Of a DNA stretch of 6,073 nucleotides, positions 47 to 6,073 are shown in pieces (the first letter of the stretch is position 1; each line of letters begins with the position of its first letter). The DNA comes from JBFJWU01 sp041623475 [NCBI: bacterium] (GTDB lineage Bacteria; J088). The stretch lies in the NCBI GenBank assembly GCA_041623475.1, contig JBFJWU010000215.1, forward strand, positions 1 to 6,073, in the 5' to 3' direction. Under the pieces are notes generated by a model, which saw only the letters and a list, made by a program, of their open reading frames with translations, ran no database searches and was not told where the DNA came from. The position numbers and the translations under genes were made by a program.

Positions 47-1291
47 TCAGCCGAGGAAAACGCTGCCGCGACCAGCCAATTGGTCGTATATCATTTCGTG
101 AATTACTCGTCGGACCTTGAGGGTTAATTCGTTGACAAGGATTTCGTTGTCGACATCATCCGGCCCGTACTCGAGGGGAAAATCCATGGGCTCGCCAAAC
201 TGGATGGTCCACTTGGTTGGCAGCGGTATCAGTCCGGCCAGTCCGAACAATGGAAATGTCGGAGTAATTGGAACGTACGGCAGGCGCAGCGGTTTGGCCA
301 GGAAGTTGGCGTTGCCAATAATCGGATGGATCTCTTCGGCCCCGACGACGGCAACGGGGACAATCGGGCTGCCGGTGCGCAGCGCCAGTTTGATGAACCC
401 GCCGCGGCCGAAACGCTGCAACTGGTAGCGGTGCCGGTAGTGCTTGCCAAGGCCTTTGACACCCTCGGGAAAAACCGCGGTCAGCTGGTCGTCGTTGAGG
501 AGGCGAACGGCGTTGTCCTGGCTGGCGCGAACGCCGCCATAACGGTACATCAATGTCCCGAGGACCGGAAAATAAAAGACGAAGTTCTCGACCAGGAATC
601 GGACAGTACGGCGAGCAGGATGCTGGACGCGCACCGCGTGTTTGATCATGGCACCGTCATAGGGCAACATTCCGGAGTGGTTGGACACCAGCAGGGCCCG
701 ACCACCGGCGGGAATGTTATTGACGCCCGTAGCGTCGACACGCCACCATTTTCGATAGAAGAAGTCGGCCAATCGTTCGGCGCGCTCTTCAAAAACCGGA
801 TCGAGGCCGAACGGGTCGACGGTGACACTGCGGTCGGCAAAGAGGATCTTGTTCCAGGCCTCGTAATAGTAGATCGGCGACATAAATCGCAATGTTGATC
901 CGACCAGGTCCAGGAATTCGTCAAAGACTCCCGGAGACGGGGGGCCATCGGGCAGGGGCAGTGATCGCAGGTGACGGAAAGCATCGGCCAGTCGGTCCTC
1001 GATCGCCGCAACATCAACCTGGCGAGCCGTCGAGTTCTGTGTTGGACCAGCGGGCGGTGTCGCCGCGGCTTTCGTCGCAGGACGTTTTGCACCTGGTTGT
1101 GATTTTCTGGCCGCCGCCGTTCGGGGTTTGGTTGCCGCTGGTTTTGGGCCGCCGTTTGCCTTGGGGCGTTTCTTAGTTGGCCGGGACCCGGGAGCTGTCT
1201 TCGAGCTTGAGCGCACATCAGGTGCCATGCCCAGAGCGGCGAACGGATCTGTTCCCAGTCGACTGTCGGATTCTGTATTTGGGTTTGCCAT
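47..1291 (-). CDS. PlsC-like lysophospholipid/glycerol acyltransferase with a basic N-terminal tail
   Basis: Predicted to move an acyl group from acyl-CoA or acyl-ACP onto a lysophospholipid or related alcohol at the inner membrane face. The 414-aa protein has an acyltransferase domain from about residue 185. The first block is VSNHSGMLPYDGA with H205 and D212, so the His-Asp spacing is HX6D rather than the usual HX4D. A GGVR block ends at R255, FPEG with E276 follows (EGVKG in place of EGTRS), and SPIVPVAVVGAEE at 309-320 is the fourth block. A hydrophobic stretch lies at about 342-357. Residues 26-92 form a low-complexity Lys/Arg/Ala/Pro/Thr tail with about 16 basic and no acidic residues; residues 93-183 look like a helical linker. 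The ATG is supported by an AGGAAAA Shine-Dalgarno, so the tail is probably genuine. A 259-bp leader separates it from folA, suggesting its own promoter. Family assignment is firm; the acceptor substrate is unknown, and the C-terminal PLPTKW...FGEP pattern only suggests the COG0204 glycerol-acyltransferase group. Confidence 0.88.
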   Translation of the reverse strand: MANPNTESDSRLGTDPFAALGMAPDVRSSSKTAPGSRPTKKRPKANGGPKPAATKPRTAAARKSQPGAKRPATKAAATPPAGPTQNSTARQVDVAAIEDRLADAFRHLRSLPLPDGPPSPGVFDEFLDLVGSTLRFMSPIYYYEAWNKILFADRSVTVDPFGLDPVFEERAERLADFFYRKWWRVDATGVNNIPAGGRALLVSNHSGMLPYDGAMIKHAVRVQHPARRTVRFLVENFVFYFPVLGTLMYRYGGVRASQDNAVRLLNDDQLTAVFPEGVKGLGKHYRHRYQLQRFGRGGFIKLALRTGSPIVPVAVVGAEEIHPIIGNANFLAKPLRLPYVPITPTFPLFGLAGLIPLPTKWTIQFGEPMDFPLEYGPDDVDNEILVNELTLKVRRVIHEMIYDQLAGRGSVFLG

Positions 1292-1550: not shown

Positions 1551-2054
1551 TCAGTTTTGTGGAATCCACGTTTCGAATGTGAACGAGTGGGCGTGACGGT
1601 CGTCGGCTGGATGATCGCGTGTGTCGACCCGTTGCCATTTTGACCAGTCAACGTCGGGAAAATAGATATCGCCATCGATCTCGGCATGGATCCGGGTCAG
1701 CAGGATCTGGTCCGCGATGGGAAGGGCCAGCCGGTACACCTGGGCACCGCCAATGATCATGACCGTGTCGCCGGCGGCGAGCTCAACGGCCTGTTGAAGT
1801 TCGTTGGCGACGTCGGCGCCGTGGGCGACGAAATCGGGTTGCCGGGTCAGGACGATGTTCTGGCGTCCAGGTAGCGGACGACCGTTCATTGCATCCCAGT
1901 TGCGACGTCCCATAATGATTGGCTTGCCCATCGTCGATTGCTTGAAGAATTTCATGTCGTCGGGCAGGTGCCAGGGCAGGTCGTTGTCGCGACCGATCAC
2001 GTTGTTTGTTGTAACAGCGGCGATCAGGACGACTGTCTTTGTGGGGGTTGGCAT
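1551..2054 (-). CDS. folA: Dihydrofolate reductase
   Basis: Reduces 7,8-dihydrofolate to tetrahydrofolate with NADPH in the cytosol, regenerating the cofactor that ThyA oxidises. The 167-aa length is typical of bacterial chromosomal DHFR. Visible landmarks are VIGRDNDLPWHLPDDMKFFK at 19-38, with D33 matching the catalytic acid (E. coli D27). MGRRNW is at 48-53, and RPLPGRQN at 59-66 has R64 in the place of the folate-glutamate-binding arginine (E. coli R57). IGGAQVY at 101-107 is the NADPH glycine pair, and T120 corresponds to E. coli T113. Between MGR and RPLPGR there is one extra residue compared with E. coli, and the usual Thr of TWES is Asn. The ATG shares its A with the last base of the thyA TGA stop. 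No strong Shine-Dalgarno lies directly upstream, so translation is probably coupled to thyA. It resembles a housekeeping FolA; nothing suggests a plasmid Dfr resistance enzyme. Confidence 0.95.
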   Translation of the reverse strand: MPTPTKTVVLIAAVTTNNVIGRDNDLPWHLPDDMKFFKQSTMGKPIIMGRRNWDAMNGRPLPGRQNIVLTRQPDFVAHGADVANELQQAVELAAGDTVMIIGGAQVYRLALPIADQILLTRIHAEIDGDIYFPDVDWSKWQRVDTRDHPADDRHAHSFTFETWIPQN

Positions 2055-2848
2055 CAGACGGCGACAGGCGCCTTGATGGCCGGATGCGCCTGGTAATCGA
2101 CCAGGGTGATGTCGTCGTAGGTAAATTCAAAGAGGTCGGTTATGTCCGGATTCAGGCGGATTTGCGGCAGTGCCAGAGGCTGGCGTGACAGTTGTTCCCG
2201 GGCCTGGTCCAGGTGGTTGGTGTACAGATGAACATCGCCAAAGGTATGGACAAAATCGCCAGGCTGGAGCCCGACGACCTGGGCGATCATCAGCGTTAAC
2301 AGGCTGTAAGACGCGATGTTGAACGGGACTCCAAGAAAGTAATCGGCGCTGCGCTGGTACAGCTGGCACGACAGGCGACCATTTGCGACATAAAACTGAA
2401 ACATCGTGTGGCAGGGGGGCAGGGCCATGTCCTCGATAAAGGGAACGTTCCAGGCCGACACCAAGATCCGCCGCGAGTCGGGATTGTTGGCCAGCTGGTC
2501 AAGGACGCGCTGGATCTGGTCGATATGGCCGCCGTCGGCGGTCGGCCAGGATCGCCACTGGTAGCCGTAGACCGGACCCAGGTCGCCGTTGTCGTCAGCC
2601 CATTCGTCCCAGATGGTTACGCCGTTGTCGTGCAGGTACTTGATGTTGGTGTCGCCGCGCAGGAACCACAGCAGCTCGTGAATGATCGACCGGAGATGGA
2701 GTTTTTTGGTGGTGACGACGGGAAATCCCTCGTTCAGATCAAACCGCAGTTGCCGCCCGAACAGGCTGAGTGTGCCGGTACCGGTGCGATCGTGCTTTTC
2801 GGCGCCCGAATCGATGATTTCCTGCATCAGTTCCAGGTATGGGCGCAC
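2054..2848 (-). CDS. thyA: Thymidylate synthase (ThyA type)
   Basis: Methylates dUMP to dTMP using 5,10-methylene-tetrahydrofolate as both carbon donor and reductant, releasing dihydrofolate; cytosolic homodimer. At 264 aa it is as long as the E. coli enzyme and appears to align from memory without gaps. The nucleophile is C146 in [14 protein letters not shown]. Phosphate-binding arginines R21, R126, R127 and R166 are present, as are D169, N177 (VPFNIASY), H207 and Y209 (DVHLY). The RSCD motif is RSAD here, a mild change. The start is GTG: it gives an N-terminus MRPYLELMQ matching E. coli MKQYLELMQ and follows a GAAAGG seven bases upstream. It overlaps folA as TGATG and lies 78 bp after meaB, so it may be transcribed with meaAB or from its own promoter. 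Function is essentially certain. Confidence 0.98.
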
Positions 2849-2926: not shown

Positions 2927-3904
2927 TTACTCAATTTCGCCGACGGTGTTCCAGCGGCCCGCGGCCAGGGCGCGGAACCGGTCACTGGCGGCGTCAAAAT
3001 CGGTGTGGCGGGTCAGGAACGGGGCCGCGCCGCCCAGTTCATCGAGATGTTCGAGGCCGTCGCGACCGAACTCTGCGCGGATCCACTTCGCAAAAAAATG
3101 GGCCTCGCGTTCCCTGAAAGTCCGATCCGCATGGGTGCAGGATGCTGCAATATCGGTGGTCAGTTCGTCCAGCCCCTGGCCGTCAATGGTGCTGGTACGA
3201 AAGATGGGCAGGTCAGGGTCCGGGTCATCCGGGCGCGCCAGGCCCAGGGTACTGCGCAGCATATGGTAGCTCTGTGCTGCCGCTTCGGACTGGTCGGCTT
3301 TGTTGATGACAAAGACGTCGGGGATTTCCATGATCCCGGCTTTCATAAACTGGACGTGGTCACCACCCAGTGGCTGCAGGACCAGGTATGTCCGGTCGGC
3401 GAGCAGGCGGATGTCGGTTTCGCTCTGGCCAATGCCGACGGTCTCGATAAAAATGTAATCGAACAGGTGGCGCAGCAGGCGGCAGACCTGGAATGTCCGG
3501 CGACTGAGGCCGCCGAGGTCAAGGTCACTGGCCTGGCTGCGAAAAAACAGGCGCGGTTCGTCATGGGCGAACTGGACACGGGTCCGGTCGCCCAGCAGGC
3601 TGCCGCCGGACTCCTGGCTGGTTGGATCGACCGCCAGGACGCCAATCGCCTGGGCGTCGGTCTGGTCCAGTAGACGGGTTGCCAGGGCACCAATCAACGA
3701 GGATTTTCCCGCCCCCGGTGTGCCGGTGATGCCGATAAACGTGCCGCGGGACTGTTTGTCGCTGTTTCCCAGTTGGTCGAGGACGTAACGTCGCCGTTGT
3801 GCGGCCTCCGGGCGGTTGTCCTCAAAAACGGAAATCAGCCGGGCGACGGCATATTTCTGCCGTTGCCGGGCGTCAGCCAGGAGCTGATCCAGCTCAGGTC
3901 TCAA
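2927..3904 (-). CDS. meaB: MeaB/ArgK-family G3E GTPase, chaperone of a B12-dependent acyl-CoA mutase
   Basis: MeaB proteins bind an adenosylcobalamin-dependent mutase, use GTP hydrolysis to gate cofactor loading, and protect the enzyme from inactivation. In this 325-aa protein, residues 1-50 are a helical N-terminal arm. The P-loop is GTPGAGKS at 61-68, followed by AVDPTSQESGG and LLGDRTRV (91-110). ETVGIGQSE is at 154-162, GDHVQFMKAGIMEI at 181-194, the guanine-specificity motif NKAD at 201-204, and the G5-like STIDGQGLDEL at 238-248; the rest is the C-terminal dimerisation arm. Segments usually reading like RG-x-LGGLARAT and GDELQGIKKG are here DLDLGGLSRRT and GDHVQFMKAG, so this is a divergent member. 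The start is TTG at 3904. The frame is open only from the TGA at 3959-3961, and no ATG or GTG occurs there, only CTG or TTG. The mutase gene ends 29 bp upstream, which makes it the likely partner. Family assignment is firm; exact start is less so. Confidence 0.92.
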   Translation of the reverse strand: MRPELDQLLADARQRQKYAVARLISVFEDNRPEAAQRRRYVLDQLGNSDKQSRGTFIGITGTPGAGKSSLIGALATRLLDQTDAQAIGVLAVDPTSQESGGSLLGDRTRVQFAHDEPRLFFRSQASDLDLGGLSRRTFQVCRLLRHLFDYIFIETVGIGQSETDIRLLADRTYLVLQPLGGDHVQFMKAGIMEIPDVFVINKADQSEAAAQSYHMLRSTLGLARPDDPDPDLPIFRTSTIDGQGLDELTTDIAASCTHADRTFREREAHFFAKWIRAEFGRDGLEHLDELGGAAPFLTRHTDFDAASDRFRALAAGRWNTVGEIE

Positions 3905-3905
3905 C

Positions 3906-3945
3906 AGGTGTCGGCCAGTAGCGGGTGTGACACCTAGACCGGTGT
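3906..3945 (-). repeat. Competing short dyads across the meaA stop and the meaB start
   Basis: In the transcript, one GGTGT (plus 3930-3934) can pair with any of three ACACC copies: plus 3941-3945, 3924-3928 and 3907-3911. The middle pair forms the near-palindrome GGTGT-C-ACACC at 3924-3934. The outer pair extends to AGGTGT/ACACCT and would enclose the region just before the TTG start. No convincing Shine-Dalgarno is seen before meaB, so these structures could affect translation. The arms are only five to six bases and may be chance. Confidence 0.3.
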
Positions 3946-5961
3946 GCCGGCACGGGATTCAAGGAGCTCGACGATCTGCGCCATGATGTCGACGATCTCG
4001 AAGTCGGCGGGGGTAAAGATGCGTTCGATGCCCAGGTCGCGCAGGCTGTCAAAGTCGTCACGGGGAATGATGCCACCGATCACGACGGGGATCTGGCCAC
4101 TGGCACCAGCGTCCTTGAGGCCATCCATGATCTGGCTGGCCAATTCCATATGTGAGCCGCTGAGAATCGAGACACCGATGACATCAGCGTTTTCCTCGAC
4201 AGCGCTGGTGACGATGTCCTCGGGGCTCAGGCGAATGCCCGAATAGATGACGTCAAATCCAGTGTGGCGGGCGCTGACAGCGATCACCTCGGCACCGTTG
4301 GAGTGACCGTCGAGACCGGGTTTGCCGACGACGATGCGGGGCCGGTGGCCCAGCGCCTGGCTGAGGGCATCGACTCGCTGGCGCAGGTCGGTCACCTGGT
4401 TGTTTTCGATGGTCAACTGCTGGCCCTCGATGCCCGTCGGCGGGCGATATTCGCCGAATACCTTGCGCAGGGTTGCGGCCCACTCGCCGGTCGTGACACG
4501 GGCCAGGGCGCAACGGATCGATGGCTCCATCATGTTGGTATTATCGCGGGCCGCCTGTTCCAGTTCGGCCAGTGCGGCCTGGGCCTCGCTGTCATCCCGG
4601 TTGTCGCGGGTCTGGTCCAGCTGGGCCAGCGTATTGGCAGCCGAATCGGCATCGACCTTGAAGATACCGCCATCGTCGCCGCCCAGCAGTGGCGATGGCA
4701 GGCCGTCGGTCCATTTGTTGACGCCCACGACGGTAATTTCACCGGCGTTGATGTCGCTGATTCGTGCAGACATTGATTTGACCAGTTGCGTCTTCATGTA
4801 GCCGGACTCAACCGCCGGCTGGATGCCACCCATTTCGAGGACACGGTCGATTTCGGCGCGGGCTTCGGCCTTGAGGGCGTTGACCTTGGATTCGATCACA
4901 GGACTGCCGTCAAACAGGTCCGGGTACTCGAGCAGGTCGGTTTCATAGGCAAGGATCTGCTGCAGCCGCAGTGACCACTGCTGGTCCCAGGGGCGAGGCA
5001 GGCTGAGGGCTTCGTTCCACGCTGGAAGCTGGAGGGCGCGACAGCGCGCATTGCGGCTGAGGGTGACGCCCAGGGTTTCGATCAGGATCCGCCAGGCATT
5101 GTTTTCGGGCTGGGGTTCGGTCAGTCCCAGTGAGTTGACCTGGACACCGTAGCGAAAACGGCGCATTTTCGGATTCTGGACACCGTAACGTTCGGCGGTG
5201 ATTTCATCCCACAGTTCAGTGAAGGCCCGCATCTTGCACATTTCCTCGACAAACCGGATGCCGGCATTGACGAAAAAGCTGATTCGGCCGACAATCTGTT
5301 CGAACTGTTCGTGGGAAAAGTGGCCGCGTTCACGGATCAGGTCAAGGATCGCGATTGCGTTGGACAGGGAATACGCCAGTTCCTGGACTGGTGTGGCACC
5401 GGCTTCCTGCAGGTGGTAACTGCAGACATTGGCGGCGTTCCAGTTGGGAATCGTTTCCAGCGCATATTCGTACATTTCGGCGATGATTCGCAGGCTGGCC
5501 TGGGGCGGAAAAATGTAGGTCCCGCGAGCCAGGTATTCCTTGACGATGTCGTTCTGGGTGGTGCCGCGCAGGAGCGCCGGGTCAATGCCGCGTTCACGGG
5601 CGAGGGCAACGTAGAGCGCCAACAACCACATGCTGGTGCCGTTAATGGTCATGGACGTATTCATCTGCTCAATCGGGATCTGGTCGAACAGGACGTGAAA
5701 GTCGTCCAGGGAGTTAATCGGGACGCCGACCTTGCCGACTTCTGGTCGGGCGATGGCGTCGTCGGACGAATAGCCGCATTGGGTCGGCAGGTCAAACGCG
5801 ATTGATAATCCGGTCTGTCCGGATTCCAGGTTCTGGCGGTACAGTTCGTTGCTGGCGCGGGCGTTGGTATGGCCTGCGTAGGTTCGGAAGATCCAGGGAC
5901 GGTCGCGGGTGGGGTTACCGTCGGGATCGGTCAATTGGTGTTTTTGTGGTGAGTCGCTCAT
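3934..5961 (-). CDS. meaA: Coenzyme-B12-dependent acyl-CoA mutase, ethylmalonyl-CoA mutase (MeaA/Ecm) type
   Basis: Most likely rearranges (2R)-ethylmalonyl-CoA to (2S)-methylsuccinyl-CoA, a step of the ethylmalonyl-CoA pathway for acetyl-CoA assimilation. At 675 aa it carries both domains in one chain. The TIM-barrel part covers about 20-500: RPWIFRTYAGHTNARASNELY at 21-41, SIAFDLPTQ at 53-61, EVGKVGVPI at 74-82, R146 in ARGTYIFPP, H183 in SYHLQEAGATP, and FRYGVQVNSLGLTE with PWDQQWSLR further on. The B12 domain follows from about 540: LDGHSNG with cobalt-ligand H553, SIL at 598-600 and GG at 629-630. The wording GHTNARASN, DLPTQ, YGVQVNSLGL and KPGLDGHSNGAE matches MeaA rather than classical methylmalonyl-CoA mutase, which has YAGFST, THRGY and HSQTSGWSLT. 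The ATG lies 11 bases after GGAGGG, a slightly long spacing. MeaB follows directly. Substrate is inferred from family resemblance; no crotonyl-CoA carboxylase/reductase is in view to confirm it. Confidence 0.9.
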   Translation of the reverse strand: MSDSPQKHQLTDPDGNPTRDRPWIFRTYAGHTNARASNELYRQNLESGQTGLSIAFDLPTQCGYSSDDAIARPEVGKVGVPINSLDDFHVLFDQIPIEQMNTSMTINGTSMWLLALYVALARERGIDPALLRGTTQNDIVKEYLARGTYIFPPQASLRIIAEMYEYALETIPNWNAANVCSYHLQEAGATPVQELAYSLSNAIAILDLIRERGHFSHEQFEQIVGRISFFVNAGIRFVEEMCKMRAFTELWDEITAERYGVQNPKMRRFRYGVQVNSLGLTEPQPENNAWRILIETLGVTLSRNARCRALQLPAWNEALSLPRPWDQQWSLRLQQILAYETDLLEYPDLFDGSPVIESKVNALKAEARAEIDRVLEMGGIQPAVESGYMKTQLVKSMSARISDINAGEITVVGVNKWTDGLPSPLLGGDDGGIFKVDADSAANTLAQLDQTRDNRDDSEAQAALAELEQAARDNTNMMEPSIRCALARVTTGEWAATLRKVFGEYRPPTGIEGQQLTIENNQVTDLRQRVDALSQALGHRPRIVVGKPGLDGHSNGAEVIAVSARHTGFDVIYSGIRLSPEDIVTSAVEENADVIGVSILSGSHMELASQIMDGLKDAGASGQIPVVIGGIIPRDDFDSLRDLGIERIFTPADFEIVDIMAQIVELLESRAGTPV

Positions 5962-5972
5962 GGGGTCAGTCG

Positions 5973-5978
5973 CCCTCC
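5973..5978 (-). promoter_or_regulatory. Ribosome binding site of meaA
   Basis: GGAGGG on the minus strand lies 11 bases before the ATG at 5961. It is a strong match with a slightly long spacing; no other start codon is better placed. Confidence 0.5.
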
Positions 5979-5991
5979 GTTGGTTGGCTGG

Positions 5992-6047
5992 ACGCTGTAA
6001 AAGCGTTATTCAGGCTGGGTTCAGGATAACAAACACCGGGCGGTTTG
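5992..6047. repeat. Dyad- and repeat-rich leader of meaA
   Basis: Several short symmetric elements crowd the meaA leader. ACGCT-N5-AGCGT is at 5992-6006. GTTAT-N16-ATAAC has arms at 6005-6009 and 6026-6030. CAAAC-N8-GTTTG is at 6030-6047. TTCAGG is repeated directly at 6009-6014 and 6020-6025, 11 bp apart or about one helical turn. These could be operator sites for meaA; a promoter probably lies here, but no good -35/-10 pair is visible. Each element alone is short enough to be chance. Confidence 0.3.
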
Positions 6048-6060
6048 CGGTTGGGGTCGA

Positions 6061-6073
6061 TGTTTCACGTGAA
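6061..6073. other. parS: Partial parS, ParB-binding centromere site, cut by the window edge
   Basis: The last 13 bases match positions 1-13 of the widely conserved 16-bp palindrome TGTTTCACGTGAAACA without a mismatch; the final ACA would lie outside. The inner 10-bp palindrome TTCACGTGAA (6064-6073) is complete. In most bacteria with ParAB-Smc segregation, parS sites load ParB near the replication origin, often close to parAB, gidAB or dnaA. It sits 100 bp upstream of the meaA start, in an intergenic stretch. Confidence 0.8.

What the first reader, a model, noticed from the sequence alone, without database searches (positions are those of the whole stretch)
6061..6073. Truncated parS centromere site at the right edge, upstream of meaA
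The final 13 bases fit the universal parS palindrome perfectly. A given 13-mer is expected about once per 67 million positions, so chance in 6 kb is small. It suggests this gene cluster is origin-proximal and that ParB spreading could cover the meaA promoter. Only three bases are missing.
Basis: partly seen in the sequence, partly recalled or inferred. Interest (0 to 1): 0.6.

Follow-up and report, generated by a model that had tools for sequence, protein, structure and literature searches.

The report
Cut-off parS chromosome-partition site
The last 13 bases are most likely a real, cut-off chromosome-segregation (parS) site, because the closest relative found carries the same site at the same place, directly between its parB gene and the same vitamin-B12 enzyme gene; the site itself is an ordinary one.

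Summary
Confirmed: the window ends (6061-6073) in TGTTTCACGTGAA, 13 of 13 letters of the parS palindrome TGTTTCACGTGAAACA; expected by chance 2.6e-4 times in the window, both strands. The missing bases could not be read: no genome is held and the last 32 bases are in neither collection scanned. A relative gave the test. Of the best 80 loci kept for the window's MeaA (capped list), the top one (L001, MAG J088, 80% identical) is the only one with parS sites within 2 mismatches. Its order is parA(-) / exact parS / parB(+) / one-mismatch parS / meaA / meaB. That second site lies 129 bp before meaA, the window's 99 bp; 19 of 20 bases from the edge agree. J088 holds only these two sites; the reversed motif occurs in 0 of 24 genomes. 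So the edge is probably the parB-meaA spacer. The missing bases may be ACG rather than ACA. Origin proximity and control of meaA are not shown. A paper lists J088 as a one-genome phylum. Verdict: real, ordinary parS in an unusual neighbourhood.

The parts
6061..6073 (.). first 13 of 16 bases of a parS palindrome, cut by the window's right edge
   Evidence: exact match; matching site at the same place in J088, L001 5723-5738
6054..6060 (-). parS flank shared with J088: minus strand reads TCGACCC here, TCGGCCC in J088
   Evidence: alignment of the two spacers
5962..6060 (-). spacer between parS and meaA (99 bp); no sigma-70-like promoter or terminator found; GGAGG at 5974-5978 may be the ribosome-binding site (by eye)
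3934..5961 (-). meaA-like B12-dependent acyl-CoA mutase, 675 aa
   Evidence: PF01642 and PF02310; PRK09426 matched but under its cut-off; 80% identical to J088
2927..3904 (-). meaB, mutase-associated GTPase
   Evidence: PF03308; NCBIfam MeaB models matched but under their cut-offs; follows meaA in J088 too, 63% identical over 268 aligned residues
2054..2848 (-). thyA, thymidylate synthase (context only)
1551..2054 (-). dihydrofolate reductase (context only)
   Evidence: PF00186
47..1291 (-). phospholipid-type acyltransferase with a basic N-terminal region (by eye; context only)
   Evidence: PF01553; best match among 24 genomes is J088, 67% over residues 7-391

Best explanation
The 13 bases are most of a parS site in the spacer between parB and meaA of a bacterium related to MAG J088. 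The 3' end of parB probably lies just beyond the right edge, the gene reading leftwards towards meaA. ParB would load on this site and on another parS near parA, slide onto neighbouring DNA, and be moved by ParA to segregate the chromosome. Shown: the 13 bases, the meaA neighbour, and the matching arrangement in J088. Inferred: the last 3 bases, parB next door in the window's own genome, ParB binding, and segregation.
For: 13 of 13 bases match; 2.6e-4 such matches expected in the window. L001 is the nearest relative by MeaA (80%; window + L001 pair with 95/98 support among 29 rows, bootstrap not settled) and carries a one-mismatch parS 129 bp before meaA, between parB and meaA, plus an exact parS between parA and parB. 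The first 20 bases from the window's edge match J088 at 19 positions, while the best off-site 20-base match between the two spacers is 15. J088 holds just these two sites within 2 mismatches in 2.8 Mb. In 24 genomes the motif within 1 mismatch occurs in 14 and the reversed control in 0. In 11 of the 13 other genomes with a site, the stretch that I fetched also holds parA and parB.
Against: The window stops inside the site, so a 16-base parS was not seen, nor any parB in the window's own genome. The arrangement is known from one other genome only. 10 of 24 genomes have no site within 1 mismatch at all, and in 2 of 13 the site had no parA/parB match in the stretch fetched. The window's ThyA has no match in J088, so the two genomes need not be close. 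J088's contigs are short, so the origin's place is unknown.
Confidence: 0.9

Rival explanations
1. The site is a parS, but beyond the edge lies a different gene, for example one starting ATG TTT CAC GTG (Met-Phe-His-Val), as recalled for some gidB genes, so that parS is the start of a divergent coding gene in a gidAB-parAB cluster.
For: The plus strand reads ATGTTTCACGTGAA at 6060-6073, an open start. That some gidB genes start this way is recalled, not looked up.
Against: In J088 the matching site lies between parB and meaA, and gidB is on another contig that has no parS.
Confidence: 0.07
2. A chance 13-base match, or a site for another CACGTG-binding regulator.
For: CACGTG is a short common palindrome, and only 13 of 16 bases are seen.
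Against: Expectation 2.6e-4, the same site at the same place in J088, and the reversed control 0 in 24 genomes.
Confidence: 0.03
3. parS here also works as an operator: ParB bound about 100 bp before meaA represses the B12-dependent mutase operon (an addition to the best explanation, not an alternative to it).
For: The site lies before meaA in both genomes. In P. aeruginosa ParB on intergenic parS3 and parS4 represses the next genes, and in S. pneumoniae mutating one parS raised comCDE expression 5 kb away (PMC7022226, part 10 read).
Against: No promoter was recognised in the spacer. Loss of Spo0J in B. subtilis did not change genes beside its parS sites, and in V. cholerae only three genes changed within the ParB-covered region (same part).
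Confidence: 0.2

Closest known systems
chromosomal ParABS system (ParB/Spo0J with parS TGTTTCACGTGAAACA)
   Same: The motif matches 13 of 13 visible bases; in J088 a ParB (PF02195, PF17762, PF23552) and a ParA-type ATPase flank exact and one-mismatch sites.
   Different: In J088 parA and parB are divergent with parS between them, and meaA follows parB. In the 11 other genomes where I found both genes near a site they lie in tandem, with no meaA match in the stretch fetched.
Noc and its NBS site
   Same: J088 ParB matches the Noc model TIGR04285 with more bits (232.1) than TIGR00180 (179.6), but under the Noc cut-off of 315.
   Different: The DNA sites are parS, not NBS (NBS letters recalled). 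The recognition residues look like the RXXG class that PMC7383237 gives for ParB (passages); my placing of positions 173 and 201 in J088 ParB rests partly on recall.
parS sites upstream of PA0011 and PA0013 in P. aeruginosa
   Same: Intergenic parS before other genes; repression reported there (PMC7022226, part 10 read).
   Different: No expression data exist here; the neighbour is a B12-dependent mutase operon.

Membership tests
parS centromere site | match to TGTTTCACGTGAAACA | tested here: inconclusive
   13 of 13 visible bases match; the last 3 are beyond the window
parS centromere site | rare in the genome and clustered near parAB | tested here: inconclusive
   met in the relative J088: 2 sites in 2.8 Mb, both beside parB; not testable in the window's own genome
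parS centromere site | a ParB of the parS-binding kind is encoded in the genome | tested here: inconclusive
   present in J088 with N-terminal, HTH and C-terminal ParB domains; own genome not held
parS centromere site | lies near the replication origin | not testable with these tools
   J088's dnaA, gidB and parB are on separate contigs of 14.9, 8.2 and 8.7 kb
parS centromere site | bound by ParB | not testable with these tools
   needs ChIP or a binding assay

The most novel reading that the evidence does not exclude
In the J088 lineage (listed as a phylum of one genome) and the window's bacterium, the chromosome partition locus has been rebuilt: parA and parB are split into divergent genes with parS in their shared spacer, and a second parS lies between parB and a B12-dependent mutase operon, so that ParB load at the centromere sets both its own expression and that of meaA-meaB.
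Probability: 0.12. Interest if true: 0.5.

Novelty: new member of a known kind. Interest (0 to 1): 0.25.

Why it matters
It adds a likely par locus for a lineage close to a candidate phylum with one listed genome, and shows that a 13-base edge fragment can be judged by its place in a relative. If ParB does control meaA, it would be a further case of a centromere site acting as an operator, here for a metabolic gene. parS as such is long known.

Tried and rejected
Reading on past the edge: no genome is held for the window, and the last 32 bases occur exactly neither in genome contigs nor in viral contigs. Searching by order and by phylum of J088 reached J088 alone; the tool tells no kinship for genomes reached this way, so this is no evidence on how isolated J088 is, and no further parB-parS-meaA example could be sought there. 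ThyA as a marker of kinship failed: no match in J088, which has ThyX; J088's completeness is not given. The acyltransferase supports kinship, but the 24 genomes had been chosen by MeaA. A promoter or terminator between parS and meaA was not found. GC skew of the 6-kb window was looked at and not used. Literature: searches for ParB spreading and expression (15 of 28 listed), divergent parA/parB (10 of 11 listed) and parS with methylmalonyl-CoA mutase (4 of 4 listed) gave no listing that reports a parS beside meaA; that covers the open library only, and I saw just the listings.

Full report
Observation. The window ends in TGTTTCACGTGAA at 6061-6073, an exact match to the first 13 bases of the 16-base parS palindrome. 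The consensus letters come from the finding and from recall; the two papers in which I looked for the 16-mer do not print it. From the window's dinucleotide frequencies 2.6e-4 such matches are expected on both strands. The site lies 99 bp before the start codon (5961) of a minus-strand gene for a B12-dependent acyl-CoA mutase (MeaA-like), followed by meaB, thyA, a dihydrofolate reductase gene and an acyltransferase gene. The full-length NCBIfam models for methylmalonyl-CoA mutase and for MeaB match but under their curated cut-offs, so the substrate of the mutase is not settled.

Own genome. No genome is held for the window, and its last 32 bases were not found by exact match in genome contigs or viral contigs. 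The three missing bases therefore stay unread.

Relatives. Scanning all 80 for parS within 2 mismatches gave sites in one, L001, the best match at 80% identity: an exact site at 4743 and a one-mismatch site, CGTTTCACGTGAAACA, at 5723. L001 reads alaS (cut; my naming from the translation), a glycerate-kinase-like gene, a periplasmic-binding-protein-like gene (minus), parA (minus), parS, parB (plus, ending 5715), parS, meaA (from 5868) and meaB (cut). ParB has N-terminal, HTH and C-terminal ParB domains and aligns with solved ParB and Spo0J chains. parA and parB matches appear in 1 of the 80 loci; 66 of the 80 reach at least 2 kb upstream of the MeaA match by my count, so the absence means something for 65.

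Same place. Both sites lie before meaA (centre to start codon 107.5 bp in the window, 137.5 bp in L001), and from the window's edge inwards 19 of 20 bases agree; the best off-site 20-base match between the two spacers is 15 of 20 (alignment). In a tree of 29 MeaA rows (window plus 28 of the 80 loci) window and L001 pair with 95/98 support; the bootstrap had not settled. The acyltransferase's best match among 24 genomes is also J088, 67% over residues 7-391 of 414. Against close kinship: ThyA finds nothing in J088, which has ThyX.

Specificity. J088's 2.8 Mb hold the two sites only, within 2 mismatches. Across 24 genomes (J088 and 23 others chosen by their MeaA) the motif within 1 mismatch occurs in 14, with 0 to 7 copies each, and the reversed motif in 0. 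I fetched one stretch around a site for each of the 13 genomes with a site other than J088; parA and parB matches were found in 11 of 13, in tandem on one strand in all 11, and not in the stretches of G015 and G022; MeaA gave no match in any of the 13. So the motif marks par loci here, and its place beside meaA was seen only in J088 and the window.

Who it is. The record title calls J088 a Dadabacteria MAG and the tree tool places that record under Thermodesulfobacteriota. A review lists J088 as a phylum of one genome, 'Candidatus Sifixiota', 2.83 Mb, 62.40% GC, iron-rich hot spring (PMC11382960, passages). Matching the MAG to that row is by name and size. The window's GC is 60.1%. Whether the window belongs to that phylum is open.

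How it works. By the established ParABS model (PMC7333895 abstract passage; PMC7022226 passages) ParB loads at parS, spreads to neighbouring DNA and is moved by ParA. That is the most likely role here. Effects on meaA are conjecture: P. aeruginosa gives a precedent for local repression and S. pneumoniae one at 5 kb, while B. subtilis and V. cholerae speak for little effect (PMC7022226, part 10 read); no promoter was recognised in the spacer. That parS mostly lies near the origin is stated in PMC7333895 but was not tested here: dnaA and gidB of J088 are on other contigs than parB, and the whole-genome scan put both sites on the parB contig.

The site matching the window's in J088 reads TGTTTCACGTGAAACG in the window's orientation, so ACG is as good a prediction as ACA, and a next triplet ACG should not count as a refutation.

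Verdict. Very probably a real parS, cut by the window's edge, of a known kind. What is unusual is the neighbourhood, seen in J088 and, as far as the window reaches, here.

Noticed in passing
L001 3907-5715: parA and parB of J088 are divergent with an exact parS in their spacer, whereas both genes lie in tandem in the 11 other genomes where I found them near a site.
   Followed up: partly
window 1551-2848; G001:C136:5901-6500: The window has ThyA with dihydrofolate reductase, while its closest relative J088 shows no ThyA match and has ThyX.
   Followed up: partly
L001 3023-3913 and 5868-8723: The par genes of J088 sit between a periplasmic-binding-protein-like gene (PF01497; perhaps cobalamin-binding, recalled) and the B12-dependent mutase genes.
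   Followed up: no
G001:C390:5988-6680 (L105): A second, distant ParB-like protein (30% identical) on another contig of J088, with no parS-like site in that contig.
   Followed up: no
window 47-1291; G001:C226 (L135) 29-1195: Acyltransferase with a basic, alanine- and proline-rich N-terminal region; the J088 copy, the best match among 24 genomes, lies at the very start of a 3.2-kb contig, so the window's gene order may extend there too.
   Followed up: partly
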